Source of the DNA: a virus
DNA length: 24,070 nt
IMG/VR virus record: IMGVR_UViG_3300023184_000513
Span: 1-24,070 of that record
Reading direction: 5' to 3' (one strand)
The translations under genes and the position numbers were made by a program. The notes under the pieces were generated by a model, which ran no database searches, was not told the origin of the DNA, and saw nothing but the letters and a program-made list of their open reading frames with translations. The first letter of the stretch is position 1. Every line of letters starts with the position of its first letter. Shown piece by piece: positions 262 to 23,766 of the stretch.

Positions 262-595
262 TCAAGTAATGACAGAGTCAGAATACAATCATATCCATAA
301 GAGTAAGTATCACTATTGGACATGGGTCGTGCGATTTTATCTACAACGTCCAGGGTGCCTGTGGCGTGACCTGTGGTGGGCATGGATGCCAGGTGAGGTT
401 ATTAGGTTTAACAGCACTGTTGATTGGAACCGTATGGATTTTGAATATTGGTTGTGGAACAATGTTGGTGTTAAAAATCTAAGTTGGGGCCTGCGCATAG
501 ACAACTGGGTTAAAGATGAAAGCTACGACTTTGCTATTAAAATACGTTGGGGCAAGACCAAGTATATCTCACAGCTGGCACTCGTAGCACGATGA
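245..595 (+). CDS. Small phage protein, LRW-motif family member with C-terminal extension
   Basis: A 116-residue protein of unknown function, rich in Trp and Tyr. I chose the ATG at 245 because GGAGGGGG lies about five bases upstream, inside the preceding gene; an ATG at 269 is also possible. Near the end is YDFAIKIRWG, which matches the C-terminal motif (hydrophobic-x-L/I-R/K-W-G) of many genes in this block. Here the protein continues for about 14 more residues, so it is the only member where the motif is not terminal. Before the motif, FEYWLWNNVGV matches the 'FxxWLxxxxG' helix seen in other members. It overlaps the next gene as ATGA. There are no signal peptide or membrane features. Function is not recognised. 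Confidence 0.72.
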   Translation: MYSLNNQVMTESEYNHIHKSKYHYWTWVVRFYLQRPGCLWRDLWWAWMPGEVIRFNSTVDWNRMDFEYWLWNNVGVKNLSWGLRIDNWVKDESYDFAIKIRWGKTKYISQLALVAR

Positions 596-846
596 CTAAT
601 AACAATAAGTTATATCAACCGCAGGAACGCCTAAACACCCTCACAGGTGTTGAAGATCATTGGTGGGAGATGTTACGTAAAGCACAAATAGAATATAATG
701 CCACTGGTGGTGACAAAGCTAATTTCCAGTTTTGGCTCACTGAACACTATGGCCTACAGATCTACTATGACTATGATGGAATATTGCCCAACCACGACAT
801 AGTAGATGAACAGAAGTATCTATTGTTTCAGTTGAAATACAGATGA
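592..846 (+). CDS. Small phage protein, LRW-motif family
   Basis: An 84-residue protein of unknown function. The ATG at 592 overlaps the stop of the previous gene (ATGA), which suggests translational coupling; no clear Shine-Dalgarno is seen. The middle holds FQFWLTEHYGLQIYYDYDG, the shared 'FxxWL...hG' helix followed by a beta-strand, and the end is DEQKYLLFQLKYR, a divergent form of the family motif (Tyr in place of Trp). This layout of a tryptophan helix, two strands and a terminal helix recurs through the plus-strand block. It overlaps the next gene as ATGA. Confidence 0.75.
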   Translation: MTNNNKLYQPQERLNTLTGVEDHWWEMLRKAQIEYNATGGDKANFQFWLTEHYGLQIYYDYDGILPNHDIVDEQKYLLFQLKYR

Positions 847-1046
847 GACTACAGCTCAGTGATCAATTGGTAGATAAGATCGTCACACGATTTGGAGTTG
901 AGAATGGCTACTTCGTCTGGGATGAGATCCCTGGTTGGTTGCGTGCCCATGGGTATGATGTTAAAATGCTAACTGATGATGAACTGTTCTACTTAGATTT
1001 TGAACAGGCCTCAGAGTGTAGCAAGTTTCTATTGGAGTGGGCGTGA
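843..1046 (+). CDS. Small phage protein, LRW-motif family
   Basis: A 67-residue acidic protein of unknown function. It starts with ATG in an ATGA overlap with the previous gene. It has IPGWLRAHGYDVKML (the 'WLxxHG' helix of the family), a beta-strand DELFYLDF, and the terminal motif QASECSKFLLEWA. The last codons (TTGGAGTGGGCG) contain GGAG about eight bases before the next gene's ATG. The end of this protein therefore appears to encode both the motif and the next ribosome-binding site. Confidence 0.75.
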   Translation: MRLQLSDQLVDKIVTRFGVENGYFVWDEIPGWLRAHGYDVKMLTDDELFYLDFEQASECSKFLLEWA

Positions 1047-1249
1047 TGCAATTAAAGAAAGTATCCGGCGGTGAAGGCGCCAGCATCTACATTGTCAGTC
1101 CATACGAAGATTTATATGCTGAGGAGTTTGACCGATTTAAAGCATGGTTACACCAATACTGTCCAAATGAATATGATTTAGATAACCGTTATCTGACCAT
1201 AACCACCCGTGCTGAAACGATTTTGGCATTGACTTTTGAGTTGGTTTAG
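1046..1249 (+). CDS. Small phage protein, divergent LRW-motif family member
   Basis: A 67-residue protein of unknown function. The ATG at 1046 shares one base with the previous stop (TGATG) and has GGAG upstream, so it is preferred over the GTG at 1037. FDRFKAWLHQYCPNEYD corresponds to the family's tryptophan helix, DNRYLTITTR to a strand, and AETILALTFELV to the terminal helix, but the LRW triplet is lost. A sigma-70-like promoter for the following gene is embedded in its last codons: the -35 TTGACT lies inside the coding sequence and the -10 TATAAT just after the stop. Confidence 0.7.
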   Translation: MQLKKVSGGEGASIYIVSPYEDLYAEEFDRFKAWLHQYCPNEYDLDNRYLTITTRAETILALTFELV

Positions 1250-1257
1250 TGTATAAT
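1229..1257 (+). promoter_or_regulatory. Sigma-70 type promoter, leaderless geometry
   Basis: TTGACT at 1229-1234 and a perfect TATAAT at 1252-1257, with the optimal 17-base spacer. Six bases separate the -10 box from the ATG at 1264, so the expected start of transcription falls on or next to the start codon. The -35 lies within the end of the upstream gene. No Shine-Dalgarno fits in the remaining space. Confidence 0.72.
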
Positions 1258-1263
1258 CATACT

Positions 1264-1491
1264 ATGAAAATCACCATGCAAGAATTTGAAGAGTTCGAAA
1301 AGCAGTTCCTTTTTGAACGAATCAAGAATCCATATTATCGTTTAGGGCAAGCGTTTAGCAATCAATTCCCAGATATTGCTAACAGCATGGAACAAGATGG
1401 TGATAATGGGTATAGAGCCGCTGTTAGACTATGGAACAGTAGCAACCGTGAAGAAGTATTAGAGATATTAGATTGGTATATCGTAAAATGA
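1264..1491 (+). CDS. Small conserved phage protein ('YRxGQAF' type)
   Basis: A 75-residue acidic protein. The ATG at 1264 is chosen because it sits six bases after the sigma-70 -10 box; a GTG at 1249 in the same frame would lie inside the promoter. The sequence PYYRLGQAFSNQFPDIANSM followed by an acidic loop and a final helix (REEVLEILDWYIVK) resembles small proteins common in T4-like aquatic phages, which carry 'RxGQAFxNxLxxxxPxxA' and end in a Trp-containing helix; their function is unknown to me. It ends in an ATGA overlap with the phosphoesterase gene, so the two are probably co-transcribed from the promoter just upstream. Confidence 0.75.
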   Translation: MKITMQEFEEFEKQFLFERIKNPYYRLGQAFSNQFPDIANSMEQDGDNGYRAAVRLWNSSNREEVLEILDWYIVK

Positions 1492-2381
1492 AAATAGCTA
1501 TCGCAAGTGACGTCCATTTAGAGTTTGGACCATTAGATATTAAGAACACAGAGGCAGCTGAACTATTAGTGTTAGCTGGTGACATCTGTGTGGCTCAACA
1601 CTTCAAAGCACAGGACAAGTTTATTAAGAGATATTTAGAGTTCTTCCGTCAGTGTAGCGAAGAATTTCCACAGGTCGTCTACATCATGGGCAATCACGAA
1701 CACTACAACGGTGACTTTGCCTATACTGCACATGTATTACGTGACGCACTTAAACCATTTGAGAATATACATCTATTAGACAATGAAACATTTCAGTTGG
1801 GTGACATAACTTTTATTGGCACGACCTTGTGGACTAATATGAACGAGGAAGACAGCCTTACCTTGTATCACATGAAAAGCATGATGAACGATTTCCGTTG
1901 CATTAAAAACAGCGATCGCCCCGTCTATCGCACCGTACCGCTTTATCTTAAAGATGAGAATGACAACTACGTGTTGGATGAGAACGATAACTACATTCCT
2001 CATGGTAGCAAACAAAAGGCTGAAGCCAGCAGATTTAGTCCAGAAGACGCTGTAGTAGAACATCGCAAAGCACTTGACTACATTAATCATGTGATCACGG
2101 GCAGAGATAACGACAAGTTTGTCGTTGTAGGGCACCACACGCCCAGCCATCGTAGCATACATGAACGTTGGCGACATGATAAGATCATGAATGGTGGCTT
2201 TAGCAGCCAACTTGATGACTATATCAGCTATCGTCCGCAGATCAAACTTTGGATACACGGTCATACACACGATCCATATGACTACATGATCGATCACTGT
2301 CGTGTGGTATGTAATCCACGCGGCTATATCAACTACGAGAAGTTTGCTGAAAACTTTAAATTGAAGTATATCGATGTCTAA
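1488..2381 (+). CDS. Calcineurin-like metallophosphoesterase
   Basis: A 297-residue protein. It has the ordered metal-binding motifs of the calcineurin-like phosphoesterase superfamily: DVH near residue 8, AGD(I) near 30, GNHEH near 70, VGHH in the last third, and HGHTHD before the C-terminus. These ligands bind two metal ions and hydrolyse phosphoester bonds; the substrate (nucleotide, nucleic acid or protein) cannot be told from sequence. The ATG overlaps the previous stop (ATGA). A variable loop in the middle contains a tandem duplication (DENDNYV then DENDNYI), absent from the core fold as I know it. It overlaps the next gene by eight bases. Confidence 0.92.
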   Translation: MKIAIASDVHLEFGPLDIKNTEAAELLVLAGDICVAQHFKAQDKFIKRYLEFFRQCSEEFPQVVYIMGNHEHYNGDFAYTAHVLRDALKPFENIHLLDNETFQLGDITFIGTTLWTNMNEEDSLTLYHMKSMMNDFRCIKNSDRPVYRTVPLYLKDENDNYVLDENDNYIPHGSKQKAEASRFSPEDAVVEHRKALDYINHVITGRDNDKFVVVGHHTPSHRSIHERWRHDKIMNGGFSSQLDDYISYRPQIKLWIHGHTHDPYDYMIDHCRVVCNPRGYINYEKFAENFKLKYIDV

Positions 2382-2700
2382 GATACCTAAATCTGTCGTA
2401 GTCGATGAAATAGTTGAAAGTGATATCTGGGATTGGGAGCATACCGATCTGCAGGAAACTATACTTGCTGATCTGGGTCGAGAATTCCAAGACAGCATGG
2501 ATCGCAGTTGGCACTGGTATGTGAGAGTTGACAGATATAAATTACAGGGTTGGTCACATATTACCATCAACAGTGATCATAAAAATCTAACTGTGGCCAA
2601 CTGGTTGACTGCTAACAATGCAGAGTTCTATTATGAAGGGCAGGAGTTTTTGATTAAAGAATCTGATGTGGCTATCATGACTGCGTTGCGGTGGGTATAA
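2374..2700 (+). CDS. Small phage protein, LRW-motif family
   Basis: A 108-residue protein of unknown function, starting with an ATG inside the last codons of the phosphoesterase gene. VANWLTANNAEFYYEGQEFLI gives the family's 'WL' helix and two strands, and it ends in ESDVAIMTALRWV. The final codons GCGGTGGGTATAATG provide GGTGG upstream of the next start and overlap it as TAATG. The N-terminal 60 residues have no counterpart in the shorter members. Confidence 0.75.
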   Translation: MSKIPKSVVVDEIVESDIWDWEHTDLQETILADLGREFQDSMDRSWHWYVRVDRYKLQGWSHITINSDHKNLTVANWLTANNAEFYYEGQEFLIKESDVAIMTALRWV

Positions 2701-2888
2701 TGATGATTCCTACTACTGCCGTGCATCGTGCGGCTTTGGCTATACAGGATCGTGGCGATATCAGTCAGTGTGATTTTGAAGATCACTATCACTGTCGCTT
2801 TGGCCTAAGTCCAGATGTGGTTAACTATTATTACGTAGAATTTGATACTGAGCAAGATGCTACTGCTTTTATGTTAAGGTGGATGTAA
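2700..2888 (+). CDS. Small phage protein, LRW-motif family
   Basis: A 62-residue protein of unknown function. The ATG at 2700 overlaps the previous stop (TAATG); a second ATG follows directly at 2703, and a GTG at 2691 is less likely. It has FEDHYHCRFGLSPDVVNYYYVEF and a very clear family end, EQDATAFMLRWM, nearly identical to that of the next gene (KDATAFSLRWL). This supports recent duplication. The codons for LRWM (TTAAGGTGGATG) hold AGGTGG about six bases before the next ATG. Confidence 0.75.
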   Translation: MMIPTTAVHRAALAIQDRGDISQCDFEDHYHCRFGLSPDVVNYYYVEFDTEQDATAFMLRWM

Positions 2889-3184
2889 TGATGGCACAAG
2901 AACATCGTGCGGCCACCGGAGAAAGACATGAAGCAGAACGAGTGCTTGAGGCGCAAGGTTGGACTGCGGTGTCTGTTCCAAAAAATCTCATGCGTGCAGA
3001 CCGCAATAACATCACAATGATGATGAAGTGGTGCGAAGATCATATAGGCACTGGCAGGATAGAACCTGGAGAAAAATGGTTAGATGAACATGACGTTTGG
3101 TATAGTTTCAGTTGGTATGGTTATTGGACTTTTCATTTTAAACACGACAAGGATGCTACTGCATTCTCATTGAGGTGGCTATGA
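2888..3184 (+). CDS. Small phage protein, LRW-motif family
   Basis: A 98-residue protein of unknown function, starting with ATG in a TAATG overlap and preceded by AGGTGG. The N-terminal half is a charged, probably helical segment (EHRAATGERHEAERVLEAQG). The second half follows the family plan with MMKWCEDHIG, KWLDEHDVWYSF, aromatic strands (WYGYWTFHF) and the terminal KDATAFSLRWL. The last codons TTGAGGTGGCTATGA contain GAGGTGG and overlap the next ATG as ATGA. Confidence 0.76.
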   Translation: MMAQEHRAATGERHEAERVLEAQGWTAVSVPKNLMRADRNNITMMMKWCEDHIGTGRIEPGEKWLDEHDVWYSFSWYGYWTFHFKHDKDATAFSLRWL

Positions 3185-3444
3185 AATCAATCATACTACG
3201 GCATCGTGAGTGGGAACGGATATTTGCTCGGATCAAGCAAGAATATGCTGCAACTCCCAGCACATACCTAATGCGCAACAAGATGCGCGAACAACTGGGA
3301 TTTACGGTGCGTGAACACGTTCATTACGATCAAGATAAAGTCAGTGATGATTATGGTGATGATTGGCGCGACTATCGTAGTCAGATACACATCGACTTTT
3401 ATGACGAAGCCGCACGAACTATGTTTATGTTAAAGTATCTATGA
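3181..3444 (+). CDS. Small phage protein, LRW-motif family
   Basis: An 87-residue protein of unknown function, starting in an ATGA overlap with GAGGTGG a few bases upstream. It begins with a basic helix (ILRHREWERIFARIKQEYAA). The acidic middle (YDQDKVSDDYGDDWRDY) is followed by IHIDFYDEAARTMFMLKYL, a family end with Lys-Tyr in place of Arg-Trp. It overlaps the next gene as ATGA. Confidence 0.75.
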   Translation: MKSIILRHREWERIFARIKQEYAATPSTYLMRNKMREQLGFTVREHVHYDQDKVSDDYGDDWRDYRSQIHIDFYDEAARTMFMLKYL

Positions 3445-3677
3445 GTATATTAGATGGTGCCAATGGTCGTAGATTTATCGTAGTCACTCCAGAAGAAGTT
3501 GGCTGGAAGGACTATATGATAGTCATAGCAGACTTTGCTTGGTGGATACAAAACGAAAAGGGTATATACAGTTGGATGGAAGAGCATCTGCCCAAGGGAC
3601 GTATGCATCACGAAGGTATGGTCATGAACATGCCCTCAGCTGAATTAGTCACGGCGTTTTTACTCAAATGGGGATAA
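3441..3677 (+). CDS. Small phage protein, LRW-motif family
   Basis: A 78-residue protein of unknown function, starting in an ATGA overlap. It has FAWWIQNEKGIYSWMEEHLPKG, a strand (EGMVMNM) and the terminal SAELVTAFLLKWG. The ATG of the lipoprotein gene that follows is formed across its AAA-TGG (Lys-Trp) codons in another frame. It is the last recognisable member of the family in the plus-strand block. Confidence 0.75.
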   Translation: MSILDGANGRRFIVVTPEEVGWKDYMIVIADFAWWIQNEKGIYSWMEEHLPKGRMHHEGMVMNMPSAELVTAFLLKWG

Positions 3678-12857: not shown

Positions 12858-13529
12858 TTAGATTTTTTTGTAAACTGCGTGCCCGGGCATGACATCAGTG
12901 AGTATGAATGAACCCTGTTGGAATAATTGCTCAACTATATCCGCCGATGGATAAATTTCAGGATATCCATGCTCAAGGCTGATTAAGCTACATTTTGTAA
13001 ACTGTGCCCAATCTACACTCATGGCCAGTTCAACATCAATACCTTCAGCATCAATAACTATAAGATCAAAATCTTTCCCTACGTGATCGATTAAGTGTTG
13101 AAAGGAAACTGTGTTTGTTAGTATTGGTATTTTCTTAGGGTTTTTGTCAAATTCATAGTTAAAATAAGATAGTGTTTCTTCTAAATGATCTGGGTCCAGG
13201 CTTGACAGGAATGAACTATTGATACTCATATAAAAAGGTTTTAGGCCGCCTATTGGGCTTACAGCAACATTAACTAAACTTACTTTATCTCTGAATCTTT
13301 CAGTATTTTGAATCAGTGAAGAAAAAGCTATTGGATCAGGTTCACAATAAACCCCAGTCCATCCTTTTTCAAGTAAAGGAAACCCCCAATCTAATCCTAT
13401 GTTTGCGCCGATGCCCAAAAATCTACCTGTAGATTCTTTGAACTGGTCCGACAAAATATTATCAAAATTATTATTTGGTTCGGGAGTATGATGATATGTT
13501 GGATTGGGCGATTGAAATTTTTCTGTCAT
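12858..13529 (-). CDS. FkbM-type SAM-dependent methyltransferase
   Basis: A 223-residue protein. Residues 37-45 (FLGIGANIG) are the SAM-binding glycine loop, YCEPDP near 61-66 the acidic strand-2 end, and IDAEGID at 159-165 the FkbM signature. FkbM enzymes O-methylate sugars or small molecules, and phages often carry them; a surface glycan or modified base are both possible targets. The gene has its own strong sigma-70 promoter whose predicted transcript starts at the ATG, which separates it from the Fe-S genes upstream and suggests early expression. The local sequence is A+T-rich. Confidence 0.86.
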   Translation of the reverse strand: MTEKFQSPNPTYHHTPEPNNNFDNILSDQFKESTGRFLGIGANIGLDWGFPLLEKGWTGVYCEPDPIAFSSLIQNTERFRDKVSLVNVAVSPIGGLKPFYMSINSSFLSSLDPDHLEETLSYFNYEFDKNPKKIPILTNTVSFQHLIDHVGKDFDLIVIDAEGIDVELAMSVDWAQFTKCSLISLEHGYPEIYPSADIVEQLFQQGSFILTDVMPGHAVYKKI

Positions 13530-13535
13530 AATACT

Positions 13536-13563
13536 ATTATATAGTATTATTTCTAAATGTCAA
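13536..13563 (-). promoter_or_regulatory. Strong sigma-70 promoter, leaderless geometry
   Basis: On the minus strand, a perfect TTGACA (13563-13558) and a perfect TATAAT (13541-13536) with a 16-base spacer. Six bases later comes the ATG at 13529, so transcription should start at or beside the start codon. No Shine-Dalgarno precedes the ATG. The -35 overlaps the end of the IscA-like gene. Confidence 0.8.
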
Positions 13564-13880
13564 ACAGTAAATGATTCTCCGCAACCACAGCGAGCTTTTT
13601 CGTTGGGATTAGCAAATTCAAATCCTTCGTTCAGACCTTTTTTAACCCAGTCTATTTCCATGCCCTGTAGATATACAAGATCTTTCTTATTAATTACAAG
13701 AGTGATTCCACGTTCTTCTATTTCAAGATCACCTTCAAAAATCTGATCAGCAAATTCTAATAGATATGCGAATCCGCTACATCCACTGGTCCTTACTCCA
13801 ATGCGCATACCAATGCCCTTGCCTCGATAATGCAGGGCGGCTTGCATTTTTTTACTAGCTGATTCTGTTAGTGATATCAT
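13560..13880 (-). CDS. iscA: A-type iron-sulfur carrier (IscA/SufA/ErpA family)
   Basis: A 106-residue protein with the three conserved cysteines of A-type carriers: C34 in RTSGCSGFAY, and C98 and C100 in ARCGCGESF at the C-terminus. These bind Fe-S clusters and pass them to target enzymes. The start at 13880 (MISLTESASKKM) fits the family length; it overlaps the stop of the four-cysteine gene before it as ATGA, and the longer open frame to 13913 lies inside that gene. Together with the IscU gene upstream it forms a scaffold-plus-carrier set. Iscs-like desulfurase is not visible, so sulfur must come from the host enzyme. The exact subfamily (IscA, SufA, ErpA) is not settled. Confidence 0.94.
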   Translation of the reverse strand: MISLTESASKKMQAALHYRGKGIGMRIGVRTSGCSGFAYLLEFADQIFEGDLEIEERGITLVINKKDLVYLQGMEIDWVKKGLNEGFEFANPNEKARCGCGESFTV

Positions 13881-14047
13881 TTGTTTTTGTTTTTCTTTAT
13901 GATACGATTCCACACAGTTTGGCGCTGTTCATCAGTAAGTTCGTACCATTCAAAGGCTTCTTCTTGTGTGCGGAAACAACCCTTACATTCACCACCTATA
14001 AATTGACATACACCTATGCAAGGGCTATCAATGGGATTGCGCTTCAT
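13877..14047 (-). CDS. Small four-cysteine DUF1289-like (predicted Fe-S) protein
   Basis: A 56-residue protein not long enough for usual gene-length cut-offs. It reads MKRNPIDSPCIGVCQF, then GGECKGCFRTQEEAFEWY and LTDEQRQTVWNRI, the full order of the DUF1289 family: SPC-x3-C, C-x2-C-x-R-T-x-E-E, W, then D-E-x-R-x-x-V-W. Cysteines are C10, C14, C21 and C24. The family is described as a predicted Fe-S protein, with no proven role. The gene lies between IscU (20-base overlap) and IscA (ATGA overlap), so all three are probably translated together. This placement supports a link to Fe-S clusters. Confidence 0.88.
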   Translation of the reverse strand: MKRNPIDSPCIGVCQFIGGECKGCFRTQEEAFEWYELTDEQRQTVWNRIIKKNKNK

Positions 14048-14417
14048 TCTTTTTCCTATAGTCTGCTATAGCACTCTTGATCGCATCTTCTGCGAGAACA
14101 GAGCAGTGTATCTTGACCGGTGGCAGAGCAAGTTCTTCAGCAATCTTAGAGTTCTTGATCTCTGTTGCTTGGTCAAGCGTTTTGCCTTTAAGCATCTCAG
14201 TGACGAGACTCGAGCTTGCAATCGCGCTTCCGCATCCGTAAGTTTTGAATTTCGCATCAGTAATAACGCCATCATGTACCTCTATCTGTAGTTTCATTAC
14301 GTCTCCGCAGGCTGGAGCTCCTACCATACCTGTGCCCACATCTGGACTATTCTTGTCCAAGGTGCCCACATTACGGGGATTTTCGTAGTGATCTAAAACT
14401 TGAGCTGAATAAGCCAT
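14028..14417 (-). CDS. iscU: Iron-sulfur cluster scaffold protein IscU
   Basis: A 129-residue complete IscU. All ligands are present: C37 and D39 (APACGDV), C62 (YGCGSA), H104 and C105 (KIHCSV). LPPVK at 98-102 matches the recognition motif bound by the HscA chaperone, so the protein should be able to use the host HscA/HscB system. The start MAYSAQVLDHYENPRNVG is typical; the longer frame to 14474 is a non-coding extension. GGAG lies about ten bases upstream, and a late-like ATAAATA box about 37 bases upstream. It would assemble clusters on sulfur from the host IscS. Its operon continues with the DUF1289-like and IscA-like genes. Confidence 0.96.
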   Translation of the reverse strand: MAYSAQVLDHYENPRNVGTLDKNSPDVGTGMVGAPACGDVMKLQIEVHDGVITDAKFKTYGCGSAIASSSLVTEMLKGKTLDQATEIKNSKIAEELALPPVKIHCSVLAEDAIKSAIADYRKKNEAQSH

Positions 14418-14454
14418 ATAGTAAATACTCCAATAGTTGACTATTATACTACAG

Positions 14455-14461
14455 TATTTAT
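14455..14461 (-). promoter_or_regulatory. Late-promoter-like box upstream of iscU
   Basis: AATAAATAC on the minus strand contains ATAAATA, as in T4 late promoters, about 37 bases before the iscU start. A TATAAT also occurs at 14448-14443, but the nearest TTGACG is 20 bases away, too far for a good sigma-70 promoter. Late expression of the Fe-S operon is the better reading. Confidence 0.5.
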
Positions 14462-14476
14462 TATAGCTCGTCAACC

Positions 14477-15295
14477 TTAACGGTAAAATTTGAGCTCTTG
14501 TTCTGTTACTGGTGGTGGAAAATCGGGTTTAGGGAGATTTTCTTGTAATTCACCTAGTGCTGTGTGCCACTTCATGTCTTGTGGACAAAATTCGCACTGC
14601 GGAATATGTTGATCCTTGGTCGCTACAAAGTTTTGTAATTCTTCTTCAGAGCAATCAGCTGTTAATGGTTTGTAGCTATACAGTAATTCACGTTGCCTTT
14701 GGTCAATTCTTAAATCAAACTGATTATCAAAATCTGGTAAGTTGCTCATAGCAGGACACTTGTATAACATACCCTGATACATAGTATGATCATGTTTCAT
14801 ATCGCAGGCCGCAAATGCCTGCACTGGATTACTTTGATGTAATACAAAATGGTCGTCTTGTTTAATTACAGTGCTCTGATGGAATACGTATGCTTCTATT
14901 AGGCCTGCATAATTACGCCATTTAGCTTTTAGTTCATCTGCTGTTGCGGGATCGTGTAAACTTAATCCAAATCCTACACGATATTTGTCCCAAAAGGTTA
15001 AATGTTCAGGGCGTTGATAGGTGCCGTTGGTCTGTATCATTATAACAGCATTGGGCCATAATCTTCTTAAATTACTAGCCCATAATTCTAAATCAGGATT
15101 GAGTGTGGGTTCACCACCAATGATAGTAATACGAGGTAATTCTAAGCGTTTACTCCATGCTTCGTATGCATCTGCATGATCAGTCCACCGCTGGTGTCCT
15201 TTGAAATTTAGATCATTGAATCGATTACATCCGCGGCAACTTAAATTGCAGACATTGGTGATGTAGAATTCTACCACAGGGAATAGCTTGATCAT
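14477..15295 (-). CDS. Radical SAM enzyme with auxiliary cysteine cluster
   Basis: A 272-residue protein. The first strand leads to C16-x3-C20-x2-C23 (VCNLSCRGC), which binds the [4Fe-4S] cluster and SAM; IGGEPTLN at 59-66 is the GGE motif. C164, C180, C215, C234 and C237 in the last third suggest a second, SPASM- or twitch-like cluster. The reaction is unknown; peptide modification is common for such enzymes. It lies upstream of the IscU genes, which would supply its clusters, though a late-like box between them could split the unit. The ATG at 15295 has no Shine-Dalgarno and sits four bases after a TTAAATA motif. Confidence 0.9.
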   Translation of the reverse strand: MIKLFPVVEFYITNVCNLSCRGCNRFNDLNFKGHQRWTDHADAYEAWSKRLELPRITIIGGEPTLNPDLELWASNLRRLWPNAVIMIQTNGTYQRPEHLTFWDKYRVGFGLSLHDPATADELKAKWRNYAGLIEAYVFHQSTVIKQDDHFVLHQSNPVQAFAACDMKHDHTMYQGMLYKCPAMSNLPDFDNQFDLRIDQRQRELLYSYKPLTADCSEEELQNFVATKDQHIPQCEFCPQDMKWHTALGELQENLPKPDFPPPVTEQELKFYR

Positions 15296-15697: not shown

Positions 15698-16384
15698 TTA
15701 TCTACGTTCGCGGCCAAGTTCTTCTGCACCACCAACTGCTGCGTCAGTAGCACCAAAACCATCTGTTTCATCTTGATCTAAGTCACTGCCTGGTGCTGGA
15801 GGTAAATCACCACCGCTTAGGTCTGCACCTTGATCGCCTGGCATTGCCATTGGTTGATCAACTTGCTCTCCGCTTAATACGCGAACGCCATTGTCAACAC
15901 CTTCACGTGCTGCCTGTAGGTTTTGCATTAGCGTGCTGAGTGTTTCACCTACTGCTGATTTAAATGCTTCTGATTGTTCTGAACCAATTTGATCACGGAT
16001 ACTGTCTAATAGTTGTGGAAGTTGTTCATTTTGCATCTTGCCTACTTTTTCAATAGCGTCTTGAACTGAATCTACCATGTCTTTGGCAGCCAACAACACT
16101 TCTGCATTGCCAACTTCACCTTCTGTTAGTTGTTGGCGATGTTCTTCTAACCAGGTAGCTAAACCTTCTTGGACTGTAAGTAGTTCCATATAGCGTGGGT
16201 TAGTTTGTGCTGTGTGTAATGCTACACTGTGGCGGATTTTATCAAGGTTAGCTTGGATAGTTTCGCTGAGCTTTTCCGCTTTTTCAACAGTAAGATTACT
16301 GTAGTTAATAGCAAAACCAAAACGACTTTCCAACAATTTGTTGATTTTACGTGATGATTTCACTGACATTTCTGATAGTTTCAT
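15698..16384 (-). CDS. Conserved helical protein, possible prohead core or virion protein
   Basis: A 228-residue protein starting at the ATG at 16384, with AGGA about eight bases upstream; a TTG at 16390 is less likely. Residues 1-20 are MKLSEMSVKSSRKINKLLES, where LLE-S could fit a T4 gp21-type cleavage site. Long helices follow (NLTVEKAEKLSETIQANLDKI; AEVLLAAKDMVDSVQDAIEKVGKMQNEQLP), then an acidic, Gly/Pro-rich tail (GDQGADLSGGDLPPAPGSDLDQDE). The helical, acidic nature is like scaffold or core proteins. I recognise it as conserved in related phages but not its function. Confidence 0.75.
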   Translation of the reverse strand: MKLSEMSVKSSRKINKLLESRFGFAINYSNLTVEKAEKLSETIQANLDKIRHSVALHTAQTNPRYMELLTVQEGLATWLEEHRQQLTEGEVGNAEVLLAAKDMVDSVQDAIEKVGKMQNEQLPQLLDSIRDQIGSEQSEAFKSAVGETLSTLMQNLQAAREGVDNGVRVLSGEQVDQPMAMPGDQGADLSGGDLPPAPGSDLDQDETDGFGATDAAVGGAEELGRERR

Positions 16385-16398
16385 GGTCAAATTCCTAT

Positions 16399-16890
16399 TT
16401 AGACTTTAATATATTTAGCCAAGTTTAGGTTTTTCTTAATTTCTTTCTTGACTTGTTCTATGCGTGACATGGTTTCTGTGTAGCGAGTAGAATAGAATTC
16501 TTCACCCCACGTATCCTGTATTTGCTGTGATTTTTTGTAACGTATACGATATAAAGAGGCCTCAAATTCTAATCTATTGAGCAGACTGTCATTGTCTCGT
16601 ATATCTTGGGCTAACTTAGTTTGTTGTTTGTGCAGGGCAATACAGTAATAGATAGCATCTTTGCGACTGAAAAAATCAAATAATTGTTTGTCATTTTCTG
16701 TAACTCGCCAACAATGATCAGTTACCTTTACTACACGATATCGTCCTACTAAAACATCAGTGCCTACCTGATAACAGAATGGTAACTCGGTGGGGTTATT
16801 AGCTAATCGAGTGAGTTCCTGCTGGGTAAAACGTCGGATTTTTTCAATATCAAAACTATCTGATAAGTTTTTTGTAATAGATTTTGCCAT
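16399..16890 (-). CDS. Conserved phage protein of unknown function
   Basis: A 163-residue protein. The ATG at 16890 gives MAKSITKNLSDSFDIEKIRRFTQ. The middle (LPFCYQVGTDVLVGRYRVVKVTDHCWRVTEN) forms a small beta-barrel-like unit. FDFFSRKDAIYYCIALHKQQTKLAQDI and a long charged helix (LLNRLEFEASLYRIRYKKS) follow. The family looks shared with T4-like aquatic phages. It overlaps the upstream small gene by 35 bases, and no Shine-Dalgarno is evident. Confidence 0.74.
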   Translation of the reverse strand: MAKSITKNLSDSFDIEKIRRFTQQELTRLANNPTELPFCYQVGTDVLVGRYRVVKVTDHCWRVTENDKQLFDFFSRKDAIYYCIALHKQQTKLAQDIRDNDSLLNRLEFEASLYRIRYKKSQQIQDTWGEEFYSTRYTETMSRIEQVKKEIKKNLNLAKYIKV

Positions 16891-17065
16891 CGTTGTTGGT
16901 GCGTAACAACACATCCTTGACTGTTAGACTGTGTGCCAATACCTGCTCACGCTCACCTAATTGGCTTTTAGCAATAGGAGTATCGCCCTCAAATTGCTCG
17001 AGCAACTCTTGCTCTTCGTTGGTGATAGGTAGTAGTATTTTGTTGGTAAGTTCGACTATCTTCAT
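16856..17065 (-). CDS. Small conserved phage protein
   Basis: A 69-residue protein: MKIVELTNKILLPITNEEQELLEQF, then IAKSQLGEREQVLAHSLTVKDVLLRTNNDGKIYYKKL. The second part looks like a short winged-helix or similar helix-plus-hairpin unit. The ATG at 17065 is preceded, five bases away, by CTAAATA and has no Shine-Dalgarno. It overlaps the next gene. No function is recognised. Confidence 0.7.
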   Translation of the reverse strand: MKIVELTNKILLPITNEEQELLEQFEGDTPIAKSQLGEREQVLAHSLTVKDVLLRTNNDGKIYYKKLIR

Positions 17066-18347: not shown

Positions 18348-18354
18348 TATTTAT
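18348..18354 (-). promoter_or_regulatory. Late-promoter-like box (ATAAATA)
   Basis: GCATAAATAA on the minus strand, 42 bases before the ATG at 18305. The TAA inside the box is the stop codon of the ligase-like gene. Confidence 0.62.
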
Positions 18355-19595
18355 GCCTTAGACAAAAAATTGGTCCTACTAAACTGCAAACGATCTACTA
18401 ATTTTACAGCGCCGCCATTGTGCCCAATAGCTACGAAACCTTCTGGTGCTGTGACCTTGTATCCGTCGTTGGTTCGTTGGAATGTGCCTATACCTTCTAC
18501 CTGCTGTAGTTTGTGCAATAGCATGCCTTTAAGCTCTACAACACGTTTATAAGTAGCTAATACTCCAGTTAGTGCATTCTGATTATCTGCGATCCACTGC
18601 TCTTTGGCTTTGATCTTGGCCAAGCGATTCTGTGCCGCACGTCCTTGCGGACCACCACTGAGTGTTTCTATATCTTTGAGCATCTGCTCGTTATAGTGAT
18701 TGATGAAATCCTGTAGGAATTGCACTGGATCTGCGGCATGCACGCCTACACGTATCATCTTGTTAATAAATGGTTTAACCATGCGTGCGAATTCTTTATC
18801 ATGCAAGATTATATCAAAGCGTTGCTGGCCAATTTTCTGCATGGTCTTGGCAGTGGCTGAGAGATATTTGCGGATTTTCGCATCTTCTGTAGGAGTCAGA
18901 CTGGCAATACCTGTGTAGTCTTTATAGGTAGCGTCATCAAACCACACGTCTTTGGTCTGCGTAAATCCCGTGACATTAACTCCAAATTGTGCAGTCATTT
19001 CATCTATGGTATCACCACCTGAGTATGTAGTATGGAATATGATACCCAATTTAGCATTGGCTATGCGTTGTCCTAAGTTGCTATTTACAGGCACTGCATA
19101 GGTAATAGTATTAGGTGTAAACACATAGCTGTCTTCATCATTTACACTGACCACGCTTACTTTACCAGGAGTAAACAGTAGATCGCCCTGCACTACTCCA
19201 CCTATGTTGAGTTTCTTAAGATATTGCAGTGCTGACAATAAAATTTCAGCCAGCTCGGGCTGATCACCATAAAATGTTTCTACATCTCGAGGAGTTTTGC
19301 TACGGCGCGGATTAGTCTTAGAAAATACCGCTTTAGTGCCTACAAAAAACTTACCGTCTGCGGGGTCAATGCCACAGATGATCGCGGGAGATCCATCCCA
19401 TTTGACTGTGAGTTTGGTTGTGGTGCCGGTGCCTTCTGCTAACATATGGCGCAGGCTATCTATATAGTTAAGTGCTTCTTCTGCACCAGCATAGCCATTA
19501 TTGAAGATCAGGTCTTCTAAATGTTCGAGATGAACATTCTTACTTTCTGTTAGTAAGAATTTTGGTGTTTGCCCTTTGATTTCAAATAGTTTCAT
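18351..19595 (-). CDS. Nucleotidyltransferase/ligase-like protein with KxDG motif
   Basis: A 414-residue protein. KWDGSPAI at 65-72 fits motif I of the DNA/RNA ligase superfamily (K-x-D-G, the lysine that takes AMP). FVGTK (84-88), GVVQGDLLF (133-141) and KLGIIFHTTY (182-191) fit the strand positions of motifs III and IIIa. EGFVAI (385-390) and AVKLVDR (396-402) fit motifs IV and V. The fold and reaction are inferred from this order only. Between them lies a helical insert (DAKIRKYLSATAKTMQKIG and onward). The N-terminus MKLFEIKGQTPKFLLTES resembles a capsid-targeting sequence with an LTE-S site. I recall a conserved uncharacterised family of this kind in cyanophages. Its ATG overlaps the previous stop as ATGA. 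Confidence 0.8.
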   Translation of the reverse strand: MKLFEIKGQTPKFLLTESKNVHLEHLEDLIFNNGYAGAEEALNYIDSLRHMLAEGTGTTTKLTVKWDGSPAIICGIDPADGKFFVGTKAVFSKTNPRRSKTPRDVETFYGDQPELAEILLSALQYLKKLNIGGVVQGDLLFTPGKVSVVSVNDEDSYVFTPNTITYAVPVNSNLGQRIANAKLGIIFHTTYSGGDTIDEMTAQFGVNVTGFTQTKDVWFDDATYKDYTGIASLTPTEDAKIRKYLSATAKTMQKIGQQRFDIILHDKEFARMVKPFINKMIRVGVHAADPVQFLQDFINHYNEQMLKDIETLSGGPQGRAAQNRLAKIKAKEQWIADNQNALTGVLATYKRVVELKGMLLHKLQQVEGIGTFQRTNDGYKVTAPEGFVAIGHNGGAVKLVDRLQFSRTNFLSKA

Positions 19596-20179
19596 GATAC
19601 TATGGCGTTACCTTGTGCGTCATACTGTATTGGTTTACCACCTGGACCCAATAGGCCACTTGGTGATGTAGTTGAAGCGGGCTTATCGGTTGTGCCAGCT
19701 ACAGAATCATCTGTGTTTTGATAGTAGATCGCATTTAACTTATTAATTATATTAGGATCTTTTACTGGTTGATTAGTATCTGTAGTCCACCCTTGCGCAG
19801 ACATCTTAAACGTGCCCAGTCCTGTTTCTAATGTAGTGCCTACTGGTATAGTCTTTTGAGGAACAGTCGGATTAGCCTTGGTAAAGTAGCTCTGTCCGGT
19901 AGAAGCGGCTCCGATAGTTTTAGCGAGATCACCCGCAAAACTACTAACATTTTTTGTTCTTAATTGGCCCGGAGTTAAGTTTTGTGAGGCAGCGGCTTGA
20001 GCAAATCTCTGTTGTTGTGCCTGACGTGTCTGTTGATAGGTCTGACCAACTTTATTTGCAACTGTACCTACGCCTTGTTTGATACCTTGCCCTACAGTGC
20101 TAACTCCCTGACGGACTTGTTGTCCTGTGGTCTTGAGTTTGTCCCAAACACCTTCGTTGATTATTTCGTTAATCTTCAT
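19592..20179 (-). CDS. Possible internal head protein with capsid-targeting-like N-terminus
   Basis: A 195-residue protein starting at the ATG 20179. The N-terminus MKINEIINEG closely recalls T4 internal-protein targeting sequences (MKTYQEFIAEA type), and INE-G fits the gp21 protease pattern (I/L-x-E, then A/G/S). Next is a basic, Gln/Gly-rich region with imperfect repeats (KTTGQQVRQGVSTVGQG, IKQGVGTVANKVGQ). The rest is Thr/Pro/Gly-rich, ending in GGKPIQYDAQGNAIVS. It overlaps the gene before by 11 bases and the ligase-like gene after as ATGA, so the two are coupled. Function is not known; packaging in the head is an inference. Confidence 0.72.
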   Translation of the reverse strand: MKINEIINEGVWDKLKTTGQQVRQGVSTVGQGIKQGVGTVANKVGQTYQQTRQAQQQRFAQAAASQNLTPGQLRTKNVSSFAGDLAKTIGAASTGQSYFTKANPTVPQKTIPVGTTLETGLGTFKMSAQGWTTDTNQPVKDPNIINKLNAIYYQNTDDSVAGTTDKPASTTSPSGLLGPGGKPIQYDAQGNAIVS

Positions 20180-20417
20180 CTTTGATCTTCCTAATGCCAC
20201 GTGTGAATTTTGCAGGATCTTGACCTTTGATAGCATTAAGAAGGCGGCGCTCAAGCTCAAGAGCTTGCTCGGCTTCATAGTTTTCACGGATGTAACGGAT
20301 TAGGTTAATAGCACCATTGATGATGTTATTAGCACGGCTTTCAAGGAGATTGTCCTTGTCTTTGTGCGTGAGTAATTCGTCAAGCTCTGTAAGTATGCTA
20401 CGGGTGCGTTTCTGCAC
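20169..20417 (-). CDS. Small conserved helical phage protein
   Basis: An 82-residue protein starting at GTG 20417 with GGAG eight bases upstream. It is almost all helix and highly charged: RTRSILTELDELL, ESRANNIINGAINLIRYIRENY, ELERRLLNAIKGQDPAKFTRGIRKI. I associate 'ESRANNIIxGAINLI' and 'LERRLxNAIxGQDxxKFxRGIRK' with a protein conserved in T4-like aquatic phages, of unknown role. It is the first gene of a late unit that follows the helicase. Confidence 0.78.
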   Translation of the reverse strand: MQKRTRSILTELDELLTHKDKDNLLESRANNIINGAINLIRYIRENYEAEQALELERRLLNAIKGQDPAKFTRGIRKIKDED

Positions 20418-20445: not shown

Positions 20446-21840
20446 CTAATCGGCTTTCTTCAAGCCCGCAAGCATACTTTTGAGTTTTGTGCTATCTACT
20501 GTAGCAGCAATTTTTGGTGAAGAATCTTCTGGTTGACTAATGCTACTACCAGTTTTAATTTGGCTTAGGATGTTAGTTGCACCTACTCCACGTAAGCCGC
20601 TTTCTTGTGCTTCTTCGCCTGGATCAGTGATGCGTAGAGTTTCAATATCATACTCTAAGTCTACTTTCATACCTACACCAGAACTACTACGTGTTTTCAT
20701 CAGTTGCAATTGATAACGACCACGTTCACGCATAGCACGTGACGTAAAGATACCAAACACATTATCTGCGGTGTTGATCTTACTCAGCCCGCCTGCGATA
20801 TGACTGTGATCAAATTCAATCTCTTCTACAGCACCACGATTAAGTTGTGACGCAGTAATCATTAATATGTTTAATTCACGTGCCAAGTTACGTAGTTCTT
20901 CTGATACATATTTGTCTTTAACAAACAAATCATTTGGTGACACTTTAGCTGATACTGGCATAACCAAGTCCAAGTAGTCTACCATGATAAAGTCTAGGCG
21001 CTTGCCAGTTTGGATCTGTAGTTCTTTTAGATAACTGCGGATTTGGTTTACGTTTGACTGTGCTGGCATATACTTGATACGCAGACTACCAGATTTCTTA
21101 CCAGTCATCTTGACTTTCATTTCAATAGTGTCTAAGTCTTTGAACACTTCTTTAGTTGAAACATTGGCTACCATACTGTCCATACGCATAGCACATAAAC
21201 CTTCACTAAGTTCTAAACTTAGATATACACCGTTAAGTCCTTGTGTGACCCAATTGATCGCTATGTTCTGCATGAACAAACTTTTGCCTGAACCAGATCC
21301 ACCTGCAAAGATATTAAGTTCACCACGGTTCATACCACCAAACAATCGTTTATCTAAAGTTGGCCAACCAGTGCTTACTTGTCCATTATTGCTCTTGATC
21401 GCCATAAGTCTGGCACGTGGATCTTCAAAGTATTCTGTGCCTAAGTCTTTGGTTAATGAAATTTGGACTGCGTCCTTGATCAGTTTCTCAACAGGATCAT
21501 ACTCGCCTTTTTCCAGCATGTCTGCGGCTTTGAGAATAGCACGTTCAAGTTCATTACGCTTAGTGAATCCTTCAAATTCTGTCATGAACCAACTGTAGTG
21601 ATCTTCTGTTAGGTCTGGCACGTGTTTAAGCTCAACTCCTGTCACAGCTTTAACCTGTTCAGCAGTAGGCATGGTTTTGTGATCATCTGTGTGTGATTTG
21701 ATAAACTTAGCCACGTCACGTAGACTGCGATCAAAATTTTCTGGATTGTAGATGTTGGTTACCCTGGTGTAGGCACTGGCGTCCTGCAACATCATTTCTA
21801 AAAATAATTTTTGTAGTTCTGGGCTATATTCTTTTGTCAT
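20446..21840 (-). CDS. 41: Replicative DNA helicase (DnaB-like, T4 gp41 type)
   Basis: A 464-residue helicase. The first 140 residues form the helical N-terminal domain used in hexamer and primase contacts. The RecA-like core has Walker A GGSGSGKS at 180-187, a following LSLELSEG strand (motif 1a region), Walker B in DFIMVDYLDLV near 285-293, and ITASQLNRGA (motif 3) and LMKTRSSSG (motif 4). It would unwind DNA 5' to 3' at the fork, powered by nucleotide hydrolysis. The ATG overlaps the stop of the radical SAM gene as ATGA, with primase further upstream, so the three form one unit. Confidence 0.95.
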   Translation of the reverse strand: MTKEYSPELQKLFLEMMLQDASAYTRVTNIYNPENFDRSLRDVAKFIKSHTDDHKTMPTAEQVKAVTGVELKHVPDLTEDHYSWFMTEFEGFTKRNELERAILKAADMLEKGEYDPVEKLIKDAVQISLTKDLGTEYFEDPRARLMAIKSNNGQVSTGWPTLDKRLFGGMNRGELNIFAGGSGSGKSLFMQNIAINWVTQGLNGVYLSLELSEGLCAMRMDSMVANVSTKEVFKDLDTIEMKVKMTGKKSGSLRIKYMPAQSNVNQIRSYLKELQIQTGKRLDFIMVDYLDLVMPVSAKVSPNDLFVKDKYVSEELRNLARELNILMITASQLNRGAVEEIEFDHSHIAGGLSKINTADNVFGIFTSRAMRERGRYQLQLMKTRSSSGVGMKVDLEYDIETLRITDPGEEAQESGLRGVGATNILSQIKTGSSISQPEDSSPKIAATVDSTKLKSMLAGLKKAD

Positions 21841-22742
21841 AGTTTAGGGCAGTTAAAGGTACAATAATTTAGTTTAGCATCTTCTAATGTAGAATAAAAG
21901 TCTGTCAGACTAGTTAACACTTCCGTAATAGTAGTTTTACTTATATCATATAAATCTCTATTCTTATAGAATTCGGTTTTATAATAAAATCTATAATCGC
22001 CAATGTAACAGCAAGGTAGATAATATCCATCTGCAGAAATAAAATGCTGATTATGATCTTTCTTACATTGTGGATCTATTAGTTTGGTTTTATCGTATGA
22101 TGTCCAAATTATATTACTTGCTATTCTTTCTTCTGCAAAGGGCGTTGATGGTTTCAATTCGTCTTGATTACTAACCCATCTGTTGCTAGGCAATAATAGA
22201 AATTCATCTACTCCTATATTCAATGCGAAATTCTTTATCGCATCAATTTTATTTTCATTAAATGAAAATGGTATACATTGCCACACGGTTTTAATTTTAG
22301 AATTTGCCAGTATTCTTAATCCGGCTAAAACTGATTCCCACTCAGAATTAATTCTATAGTTCATATAATTTTCTGGCAAACCATCTATACCAAAAATTAC
22401 TTCATCTTCAGAAGTTAATATTTCTATAAGTTCTTTCCACCATTTTTCTGTTTTATAACTACCGTTGGTTGCTAATCTAATAGAACATCCCTGTTCTTTA
22501 AAAAAGTTGATCATTTCAAATAACTGATCATAATATATCGGATCACCATAGTTACCACAAAGACTAATATTTTTACCTTGGAGATTTATATCCAAGAAAT
22601 TTTTTAAATGATCTAACTTTAGATTTTTATTAGTCCAACGTTTAGGAAATTTCTCAATAAATTCTGTGCGGCTACATCGTGGACATTTTGAGGTACACAT
22701 GTTAGTAGGTTCAATATGAAATCCTTTGATTTGATCAAGCAT
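21837..22742 (-). CDS. Radical SAM/SPASM-type enzyme between primase and helicase
   Basis: A 301-residue protein from the ATG at 22742 (an ATG at 22793 would overlap primase much further). EPTNMCTSKCPRCSR carries C16-x3-C20-x2-C23 for the [4Fe-4S] cluster. ISLCGNYGDPIYY replaces the GGEP motif, and LATNGS follows. Cysteines in QCKKDH, LPCCYIGDYRF and CTFNCPKL at the end fit an auxiliary SPASM-like cluster. Enzymes of this kind often modify peptides; the substrate here is unknown. It overlaps primase by eight bases and helicase as ATGA. The gene is clearly richer in A and T than its neighbours, which suggests later arrival. Confidence 0.88.
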   Translation of the reverse strand: MLDQIKGFHIEPTNMCTSKCPRCSRTEFIEKFPKRWTNKNLKLDHLKNFLDINLQGKNISLCGNYGDPIYYDQLFEMINFFKEQGCSIRLATNGSYKTEKWWKELIEILTSEDEVIFGIDGLPENYMNYRINSEWESVLAGLRILANSKIKTVWQCIPFSFNENKIDAIKNFALNIGVDEFLLLPSNRWVSNQDELKPSTPFAEERIASNIIWTSYDKTKLIDPQCKKDHNQHFISADGYYLPCCYIGDYRFYYKTEFYKNRDLYDISKTTITEVLTSLTDFYSTLEDAKLNYCTFNCPKL

Positions 22743-23766
22743 ACAATTTTTTCCGCATGAGCTCAATTTTGAGTTTACTTGACTCTTTTGCATCTAATAT
22801 AGTTTTCAGCACAAACAACTTGCCATATTTAACCACCGCTTCGTTGATATCTTTGCAGGTTTCTAACCATATAGGAAAACTCACACTCCATCCATACTCT
22901 AAGGCATTCTTAATCATCTTTGCACCAGCACGATCCTTATCTGCCACAACAATAACTTCTTTACCCAATGATTCTATAATGTCTGCTTGGGTTTCATTAC
23001 ACTCATTATTTAACACAGCTACTCCATCTATGCTCATAGCATCAAATGGCCCTTCACAGACTATGACGAATTTTGATTCTGGTCTTTGATTATTCATGTT
23101 GAATACGAAATTGGGCTCATAATGACTGTAGTATTTGGGTTTGACTCCATCTACAAATGCTCTCGATGTATATCCGATTGTTTTGCCTTGCCAAATGCAG
23201 GGAATGATCACACGTTGATGTAGGCTGTGTTCGGTCGAGTCTGTCCAATAGAATTCATACTTCTTATGATCTATTTTACGCTCCTCAACGTAATCAACTG
23301 CGGTATTTAACAACCCAGGAACATTTTCAAAGTTGTCTAAGATATGGAATGTTATATACTGTTGGAAGCTGACGGCATTCGCTGGTAAATCACGTACTTT
23401 AAATTCAATCCGTTCTTCTTCTGCTTCAGCTTTGACCTCTTCTGGATTAACCAATTCTCTGACACGTATGGCTTCGATCACCAAACGCTTTATGTCGTTT
23501 TCATCTGCACCTAACCATTTTAATAACTTACGGAATTTGAATGTTAGATGACGACCAGGTTGATATGATGCTTTGAAATTACAGTTGAAACAGTGATAGC
23601 TGACACTACCATCAGCATTGGCAGTAAGCCCACCACGACCACGAGTATCAGCTGATTCTCCGTTATGTATGCAACAGGGCGCATTGAAACTGGTCCACCC
23701 ACTGGGTGTAGTTTTCTTCTTAGCTGGTAAGATTGATTTAATAAAGTCAGCGATGATATTCAGCAT
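22735..23766 (-). CDS. 61: DNA primase (T4 gp61 type)
   Basis: A 343-residue primase. The N-terminal zinc ribbon has PCCIHNG (C31/C32, H34) and YHCFNCNF (C59, C62). The TOPRIM catalytic part has VIVCEGPFDAMSI with the catalytic Glu, and VIVVADKDRAG with the D-x-D metal site. It would make RNA primers for lagging-strand synthesis with the helicase encoded downstream. A sigma-70 promoter ends seven bases before the ATG, so the mRNA has almost no leader. The length fits the T4 family. Confidence 0.93.
   Translation of the reverse strand: MLNIIADFIKSILPAKKKTTPSGWTSFNAPCCIHNGESADTRGRGGLTANADGSVSYHCFNCNFKASYQPGRHLTFKFRKLLKWLGADENDIKRLVIEAIRVRELVNPEEVKAEAEEERIEFKVRDLPANAVSFQQYITFHILDNFENVPGLLNTAVDYVEERKIDHKKYEFYWTDSTEHSLHQRVIIPCIWQGKTIGYTSRAFVDGVKPKYYSHYEPNFVFNMNNQRPESKFVIVCEGPFDAMSIDGVAVLNNECNETQADIIESLGKEVIVVADKDRAGAKMIKNALEYGWSVSFPIWLETCKDINEAVVKYGKLFVLKTILDAKESSKLKIELMRKKLYA

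What the first reader, a model, noticed from the sequence alone, without database searches (positions are those of the whole stretch)
18351..19595. Unrecognised ligase-like nucleotidyltransferase in a probable head-gene unit
Seen: KWDG (65-68), GVVQGDLLF (133-141), KLGIIFHTTY (182-191), EGFV (385-388) and K398 in AVKLVDR follow the order of motifs I, III, IIIa, IV and V of DNA/RNA ligases and capping enzymes. A helical insert separates motifs IIIa and IV, and no OB-fold follows. The N-terminus (MKLFEIKGQTPKFLLTE-S) could be a prohead-targeting sequence cut by a gp21-like protease. Inferred: an enzyme packaged in the head and injected, as T4 Alt is, that adenylates or seals a nucleic acid or modifies a protein.
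Basis: partly seen in the sequence, partly recalled or inferred. Interest (0 to 1): 0.7.

Follow-up and report, generated by a model that had tools for sequence, protein, structure and literature searches.

The report
Ligase-like phage enzyme, probably capsid-packaged
A protein of unknown function shared by hundreds of T4-like water phages carries the invariant catalytic signature of RNA/DNA ligases and, in this lineage, a removable-looking N-terminal tag like the one T4 uses to pack proteins into its head, so it may be an enzyme delivered into the host with the phage DNA.

Summary
The ORF is real: minus strand, 19595..18351, 414 aa, Pfam DUF6267 (E 1.7e-105), T4-GC 71 of cyanophages, in at least 469 phage records. 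Short relatives lack most of the helical insert but keep the motifs. Two confident AlphaFold models (pLDDT 87-89) find ligases and capping enzymes first in the PDB, but weakly (best E 0.1). Sequence methods give no link, nor do they link undisputed T4 ligases to each other. A covalent nucleotidyltransferase is likely, not proven. The N-terminus is supported as a T4-type capsid-targeting propeptide: [LIVMF]xE-[SAG] in 40/40 distinct window-clade N-termini, T4 register in 65/80 of the sister clade against 0.07% background, gp21 in a relative. Cyanophage members lack it and are absent from two published virion lists, whereas the linked, tag-bearing cytidylyltransferase is present. Packaging and substrate are untested. 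No description of this family as a nucleotidyltransferase was found.

The parts
18351..19595 (-). DUF6267 / phrog_455 / T4-GC 71 protein, 414 aa, ligase-like nucleotidyltransferase candidate
   Evidence: (E 1.7e-105, 353.9 bits against cut-off 27)
19545..19595 (-). Residues 1-17, MKLFEIKGQTPKFLLTE: putative capsid-targeting propeptide with gp21-like cleavage site LTE-S
   Evidence: Low confidence in model; 40/40 distinct window-clade N-termini carry [LIVMF]xE[SAG]; absent from cyanophage members
19512..19532 (-). Residues 22-28 HLEHLED: conserved family signature before motif I (H25 invariant)
   Evidence: role unknown
19392..19403 (-). Motif I, K65-W-D-G68 (putative nucleotidyl-lysine)
   Evidence: Invariant in 107 sequences; K65 follows the strand 61-64 in the model
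19173..19199 (-). Motif III-like strand GVVQGDLLF 133-141
   Evidence: Q136 and D138 invariant, G137 at least 90%; strand 134-141
19023..19052 (-). Motif IIIa-like strand KLGIIFHTTY 182-191
   Evidence: H188, T189, Y191 invariant; strand 183-192
18507..18893 (-). Helical insert, residues 235-363
   Evidence: Helices in model; much of it missing in natural short forms L085, L086, L290
18432..18443 (-). Motif IV EGFV 385-388
   Evidence: E385, G386, V388 invariant
18390..18410 (-). Motif V AVKLVDR 396-402 (K398, R402)
   Evidence: K398 and R402 invariant; strand 396-399
19592..20179 (-). Upstream neighbour, probably starting at the internal ATG that gives MKINEIINE-G, a capsid-targeting-like N-terminus
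   Evidence: 43 of 67 window-clade upstream neighbours match the pattern; resembles T4 gp24 MAKINELLRES
20169..20417 (-). Small protein of the same unit, phrog_11854 virion structural protein
   Evidence: E 9e-17
15698..16390 (-). phrog_14154 virion structural protein homologue; N-terminus with KLLE-S
   Evidence: E 5.9e-12
16856..17065 (-). phrog_16215 virion structural protein homologue
   Evidence: E 6.9e-6
20446..21840 (-). gp41-type replicative helicase, conserved upstream landmark of the DUF6267 locus
   Evidence: phrog_19 E 7.7e-76; same order in cyanophages

Best explanation
The protein is a remote branch of the covalent (lysyl-NMP) nucleotidyltransferase superfamily of RNA/DNA ligases and capping enzymes. 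K65 attacks the alpha-phosphate of a nucleoside triphosphate (ATP most likely; inferred), E385 and K398 assist, and the nucleotide is passed to an acceptor, most likely an RNA or DNA 5'-phosphate end (inferred). In the lineage of the window it is made with a 17-residue propeptide that targets it to the prohead core and is cut by the gp21-type protease after LTE, so that the mature enzyme, starting at S18, is carried in the head and acts at the start of infection (inferred). Cyanophage members have no such tag and probably act in the cell in which they are made, genetically linked to a head-packaged HxGH-type nucleotidyltransferase (T4-GC 190). My estimates: nucleotidyltransferase chemistry 0.75; packaging in this lineage 0.55; nucleic-acid end as acceptor 0.4. 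Shown here: motif invariance, fold resemblance, conserved cleavable-looking N-terminus, gp21 in relatives, linkage to T4-GC 190. Not shown: any activity or the virion location of this protein.
For: Motif residues invariant across 107 homologues at 29-83% identity to the window protein and in short forms. Secondary-structure order in the models (K after a strand; III, IIIa, IV and V on strands) follows the ligase order. Foldseek on the short-form model: every listed PDB hit with probability of at least 0.09 is a DNA ligase, RNA ligase or capping enzyme, 21 of 50 rows in all; background rows have at most 0.03. The window model ranks Naegleria RNA ligase first and second, and giant-virus RNA ligase first after its own family among viral models. 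Capsid signal: T4-register pattern in 65/80 DLP_6-clade members and 114/119 cyanophage T4-GC 190 proteins, against 9 of 12,418 internal methionines. T4-GC 190 with this tag was found in virions of S-SM1, S-SZBM1 and S-CREM2 (PMC3037559; PMC9146016; PMC10665884; N-termini). In T4 the ten-residue tag suffices for packaging, residues 4 and 7 for targeting, 8 and 10 for processing (PMC9026906). gp21 and gp23 occur in genomes of relatives, including a 210-kb window-clade contig. N-terminal type is a clade-level trait.
Against: No PDB fold match is significant on its own (best E 0.1; TM below 0.3). No sequence-profile link to T4 Rnl2 or other ligases. Motif III has D for E, IIIa lacks a conserved aromatic, motif V has one K. 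In S-SZBM1 and S-CREM2, virion proteomics list T4-GC 190 but not DUF6267 (both lack the tag). The window-clade tag is 17 residues and does not fit the strict T4 register (0/80). Genome-wide enrichment of the cleavage pattern in the 210-kb relative is weak (8/177 ORFs against 3% of internal windows).
Confidence: 0.55

Rival explanations
1. An NAD+-linked pair: DUF6267 takes AMP from NAD+ (as LigA does), releasing NMN, and the linked T4-GC 190 (NMNAT/cytidylyltransferase-like) resynthesises NAD+ from NMN and ATP, or the pair places a nucleotide cofactor on an acceptor.
For: T4-GC 190 relatives were found in 189 fetched loci, usually within 0-5 kb of DUF6267; fused in L105 and within profile phrog_455. 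S-CREM2 holds both although about 65 kb apart. Weak NCBIfam and PHROG matches to NMN adenylyltransferases.
Against: T4-GC 190 was found nowhere in the window, near the window-clade loci or in the 210-kb relative, so the pair is not obligatory. No Ia-like NAD+ domain was recognised. Substrate of T4-GC 190 is unknown.
Confidence: 0.15
2. A protein-modifying (AMPylating) head enzyme, functionally analogous to T4 Alt: the lysyl-nucleotide is transferred to a host or phage protein.
For: Packaged enzymes of T4 include the protein modifier Alt (annotation). Motifs III and IIIa deviate from nucleic-acid ligases, and there is no OB-fold.
Against: No known member of the lysyl-NMP superfamily is, to my knowledge, a dedicated protein AMPylase; no evidence specific to this.
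Confidence: 0.1
3. A non-enzymatic structural or core protein whose motif resemblance to ligases is convergent.
For: Neighbours match virion structural PHROGs; Foldseek E-values are not significant; the conserved HxEHxED and K-L-V-D-R-x-x-F-S-x-x-N-F blocks have no clear counterpart in classic ligases.
Against: Invariant charged residues in ligase order over very diverse sequences; both models rank only nucleotidyltransferases above background probability.
Confidence: 0.2
4. Nucleotidyltransferase, but not packaged: the N-terminal peptide is an ordinary disordered leader and the enzyme works in the producing cell, as probably in cyanophages.
For: Cyanophage members lack the tag and are not in virion lists. 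The window-clade peptide is longer than the T4 signal.
Against: Conservation of [LIVMF]xE[SAG] in all 40 distinct N-termini; a T4-register tag in the sister clade; a tag-like N-terminus on the upstream neighbour; gp21 in relatives.
Confidence: 0.3

Closest known systems
Pfam DUF6267 (PF19782) / PHROG 455 / T4-GC 71 of cyanophages
   Same: Full-length family member, 353.9 bits against a cut-off of 27; same position downstream of the gp41 helicase
   Different: Window clade carries an extended cleavable-looking N-terminus and lacks the linked T4-GC 190 cytidylyltransferase
RNA ligases of the Rnl5/Rnl2/REL type (Naegleria RNA ligase 5cot/6vtd, Trypanosoma REL1 1xdn, T4 Rnl2)
   Same: KxDG, EG(F/Y)V and K motifs in the same order; among the first PDB fold matches
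   Different: D instead of E in motif III, no conserved aromatic in IIIa, single K in motif V, helical insert, N-terminal HxEHxED; no sequence-profile similarity
ATP-dependent DNA ligases and mRNA capping enzymes
   Same: Motif order and fold matches
   Different: No OB-fold and no motif VI; the chain ends 16 residues after K398
T4 head proteins cut by gp21 (IPII, IPIII, gp24, Alt)
   Same: Short N-terminal peptide ending in hydrophobic-x-E before a small residue; sister clade in T4 register
   Different: 17 residues rather than 10 in the window clade; virion location not shown

Membership tests
DUF6267 (PF19782) | Score above Pfam gathering cut-off over the full model | tested here: met
   353.9 bits against 27, model 1-373 of 376
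Covalent nucleotidyltransferase superfamily | Motif I KxDG with invariant lysine | tested here: met
   K65-x-D67-G68 invariant in 107 sequences
Covalent nucleotidyltransferase superfamily | Motif III aromatic-x-G-E | tested here: not met
   Invariant Q136 and D138 with G or A between: conservative D for E, no aromatic
Covalent nucleotidyltransferase superfamily | Motif IIIa aromatic stacking residue | tested here: inconclusive
   Strand present, but the residue before H188 varies; H188-T189-x-Y191 invariant instead
Covalent nucleotidyltransferase superfamily | Motif IV EGxV and motif V lysine | tested here: met
   E385, G386, V388, K398 invariant
Covalent nucleotidyltransferase superfamily | Nucleotidyltransferase fold | tested here: inconclusive
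   Top PDB matches are ligases/capping enzymes in two models, but E 0.1-0.3 and TM below 0.3
Covalent nucleotidyltransferase superfamily | Lysyl-nucleotide adduct | not testable with these tools
   Needs biochemistry
T4 Rnl2-type RNA ligase | Detectable sequence-profile similarity | tested here: not met
   No Pfam ligase hit; hhalign probability below 1%; T4 gp30 and Rnl1 against Rnl2 score no better, so the test lacks power
DNA ligase / mRNA capping enzyme | C-terminal OB-fold with motif VI | tested here: not met
   Only a 12-residue helix follows motif V
T4-type capsid-targeted proteins | N-terminal tag in T4 register: hydrophobic residues at 4 and 7, I/L at 8, E at 10 | tested here: not met
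   Window clade 0/80 in strict register; sister clade 65/80
T4-type capsid-targeted proteins | Hydrophobic-x-E followed by a small residue, near the N-terminus | tested here: met
   LTE-S in the window; 40/40 distinct window-clade N-termini
T4-type capsid-targeted proteins | gp21-type prohead protease in the genome | tested here: met
   PF03420 in a 210-kb window-clade relative, E 1.7e-28; the window itself is a fragment in which no head-assembly genes of this kind were seen
T4-type capsid-targeted proteins | Presence in the virion, cleaved | not tested
   No proteomics found for this clade; supplementary tables of cyanophage proteomes could not be opened

The most novel reading that the evidence does not exclude
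A ligase-type lysyl-nucleotidyltransferase packaged in the head and injected, in many phages linked or fused to a packaged NMNAT-like nucleotidyltransferase, forming a virion-borne nucleotide (possibly NAD+)-handling system that modifies nucleic acid or protein in the first minutes of infection.
Probability: 0.2. Interest if true: 0.85.

Novelty: new variant of a known kind. Interest (0 to 1): 0.6.

Why it matters
DUF6267 is in at least 469 phage records, mostly T4-like cyanophages of the sea, and has no assigned function. Recognising it as a likely ligase-type nucleotidyltransferase names a lysine to mutate and an adduct to look for. If the tagged clades do package it, it would be a delivered nucleotidyltransferase, a kind of head enzyme not known to me. 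The comparison across clades (same enzyme with or without the tag, cyanophage partner nearly always tagged) also suggests a simple sequence predictor of head content in T4-like phages that agrees with three published proteomes.

Tried and rejected
Sequence search of PDB chains with the single protein and with the profile: only chance hits. Weak Pfam hits PorV and PoNi_N are below their cut-offs and rejected. Profile-profile comparison with 79 Rnl2-type ligases failed, and so did controls among undisputed T4 ligases, so it is uninformative. Literature: DUF6267 is named in no held paper; two broad surveys (jumbo-phage RNA repair; viral NAD+/ADP-ribose systems) gave no description of this family in the passages read. 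Hits in bacterial and archaeal genomes are mostly contigs of metagenome-assembled genomes with unrelated host names and look like phage sequence binned with hosts; not examined further. Klebsiella tail-fibre hits at E of about 1 are chance. Looking for T4-GC 190 in the window clade found none.

Full report
What is there. The finding's interval holds a single 414-aa open frame on the minus strand (19595 to 18351). It is a full-length member of Pfam DUF6267 and of PHROG 455, both without function. tblastn finds 469 phage records at E<=1e-3, mostly Synechococcus and Prochlorococcus myoviruses, plus Pelagibacter HTVC008M, Methylophilales phages and Stenotrophomonas phage DLP_6. In cyanophages it is annotated T4-GC 71 and usually sits a little downstream of the gp41 helicase gene, as in the window (helicase 20446-21840).

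Conservation test. From scans of viral contigs with the window protein, a DLP_6-led alignment, a cyanophage protein and a short form, 107 sequences were chosen and aligned. Invariant columns include K65, W66, D67, G68, P70, Q136, D138, H188, T189, Y191, N278, K356, E385, G386, V388, K398, R402, F405, S406, N409 and F410. Cyanophages such as S-SM1, P-SSM4 and ACG-2014f encode 300-325 aa versions that lack much of the helical region but keep the motifs, with QAD for QGD in motif III in some.

Fold. AlphaFold2 on the window protein with that alignment gave mean pLDDT 87.4, pTM 0.81; on a short form (L290, 308 aa) 88.9 and 0.85. In both, motif I lies just after or at the end of a strand, motifs III, IIIa, IV and V fall on strands in ligase order, and the chain ends with one helix after motif V. 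Foldseek against the PDB: for the window model the first two matches are Naegleria RNA ligase, with REL1 and a capping enzyme further down; for the short form 21 of the 50 listed rows are DNA ligases, RNA ligases or capping enzymes from several distinct families, and all rows with probability of at least 0.09 belong to them. Against predicted viral structures, the first match after its own family is a giant-virus RNA ligase. No single PDB match is significant (best E 0.1), TM-scores are below 0.3, and the coordinates could not be examined, so the active-site geometry is not verified. Profile-profile comparison with Rnl2 is negative, but the same test does not connect T4 gp30 or Rnl1 to Rnl2 either.

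N-terminus. T4 internal proteins carry a ten-residue capsid-targeting sequence in which residues 4 and 7 target and 8 and 10 govern processing by gp21 (PMC9026906). T4 IPII and IPIII begin MKTYQEFIAE-A and gp24 begins MAKINELLRE-S (cleavage points from general knowledge). A strict pattern in that register matches 65 of 80 DUF6267 proteins in the clade of DLP_6, 74 of 79 and 40 of 40 T4-GC 190 cytidylyltransferases in two cyanophage groups, none of 80 window-clade DUF6267 proteins and 1 of 116 cyanophage ones, against 9 of 12,418 internal methionines. The window clade instead has a longer MKLFEI...[LIVMF]xE[SAG] peptide, present in all 40 distinct N-termini examined, and its upstream neighbour often starts MKINEI-x-x-E-G. 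On a tree of 121 sequences the extended type forms one clade of 28 with full support, and the tag types are strongly clustered. A 210-kb window-clade contig encodes gp21 and gp23; in it the DUF6267 unit has several proteins with such sites, though genome-wide enrichment is weak.

Partner and virion data. A cytidylyltransferase/NMNAT-like protein, T4-GC 190 (phrog_395/3041), was found in 189 fetched loci, usually within 0-5 kb downstream of DUF6267; one locus (L105) and the PHROG 455 profile show a fusion. It was not found in the window, in the window-clade loci or in the whole 210-kb relative. T4-GC 190 was detected in purified virions of S-SM1 (PMC3037559), S-SZBM1 (PMC9146016) and S-CREM2 (PMC10665884), and an NMNAT-like protein in S-SCSM1 (PMC9602691). 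The first three proteins all begin with a tag-like sequence: MKKFSAFLNE-A, MRFRQFIIE-A, MKNFSSFLTE-A. The untagged DUF6267 proteins of S-SZBM1 (SSZBM1_141) and S-CREM2 (58914-59762) do not appear in the published lists. The authors of two of these studies caution that abundant enzymes may co-purify. The tag thus agrees with the published virion content, and it predicts that DUF6267 is packaged in the window and DLP_6 clades but not in cyanophages.

Mechanism. The best-supported reading is lysyl-nucleotide chemistry at K65, with transfer to a nucleic-acid end as the usual role of the superfamily. The D for E in motif III, the H-T in IIIa and the conserved N-terminal HxEHxED mean that the nucleotide and acceptor cannot be assumed. 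The NAD+-recycling idea with T4-GC 190 is attractive but cannot be general, since the window clade lacks the partner. Packaging, injection and substrate are inferences.

Novelty. No held paper names DUF6267, and the passages read in two broad surveys do not describe it. I file it as a new variant of a known kind: a candidate new branch of the ligase/capping superfamily. It is not filed as an RNA ligase, DNA ligase or capping enzyme, because tested defining features are missing.

Noticed in passing
window 200-3677 (+): A run of about ten small, mostly overlapping ORFs (65-131 aa), several ending in a similar (F/A)xLRW / LKW / LKY C-terminus; nearly all without PHROG matches. Possibly a tandem family of diverged paralogues.
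   Followed up: partly
window 13560-15295 (-): Phage-encoded Fe-S cluster genes: NifU/IscU-like scaffold (14028-14474, E 1.5e-51), IscA-like (13560-13913) and a radical SAM protein (14477-15295) in a row; a NifU-like N-terminus also follows the same unit in the 210-kb relative.
   Followed up: partly
window 21837-22793 (-): A second radical SAM/SPASM protein between the helicase and a Toprim-type primase (22735-23766).
   Followed up: no
window 12858-13529 (-): FkbM-family methyltransferase.
   Followed up: no
L085 6902-8062, L083 9200-10276 and other cyanophage loci: T4-GC 190 cytidylyltransferases carry an almost universal T4-like capsid-targeting N-terminus, which would explain why they are found in virion proteomes; not pointed out in the passages read.
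   Followed up: yes
L088 7392-9179; L084 9706-11871: In HTVC008M and DLP_6 the cytidylyltransferase has long C-terminal regions: DUF5824 in the first, a stretch with weak ParB-like matches in the second.
   Followed up: no
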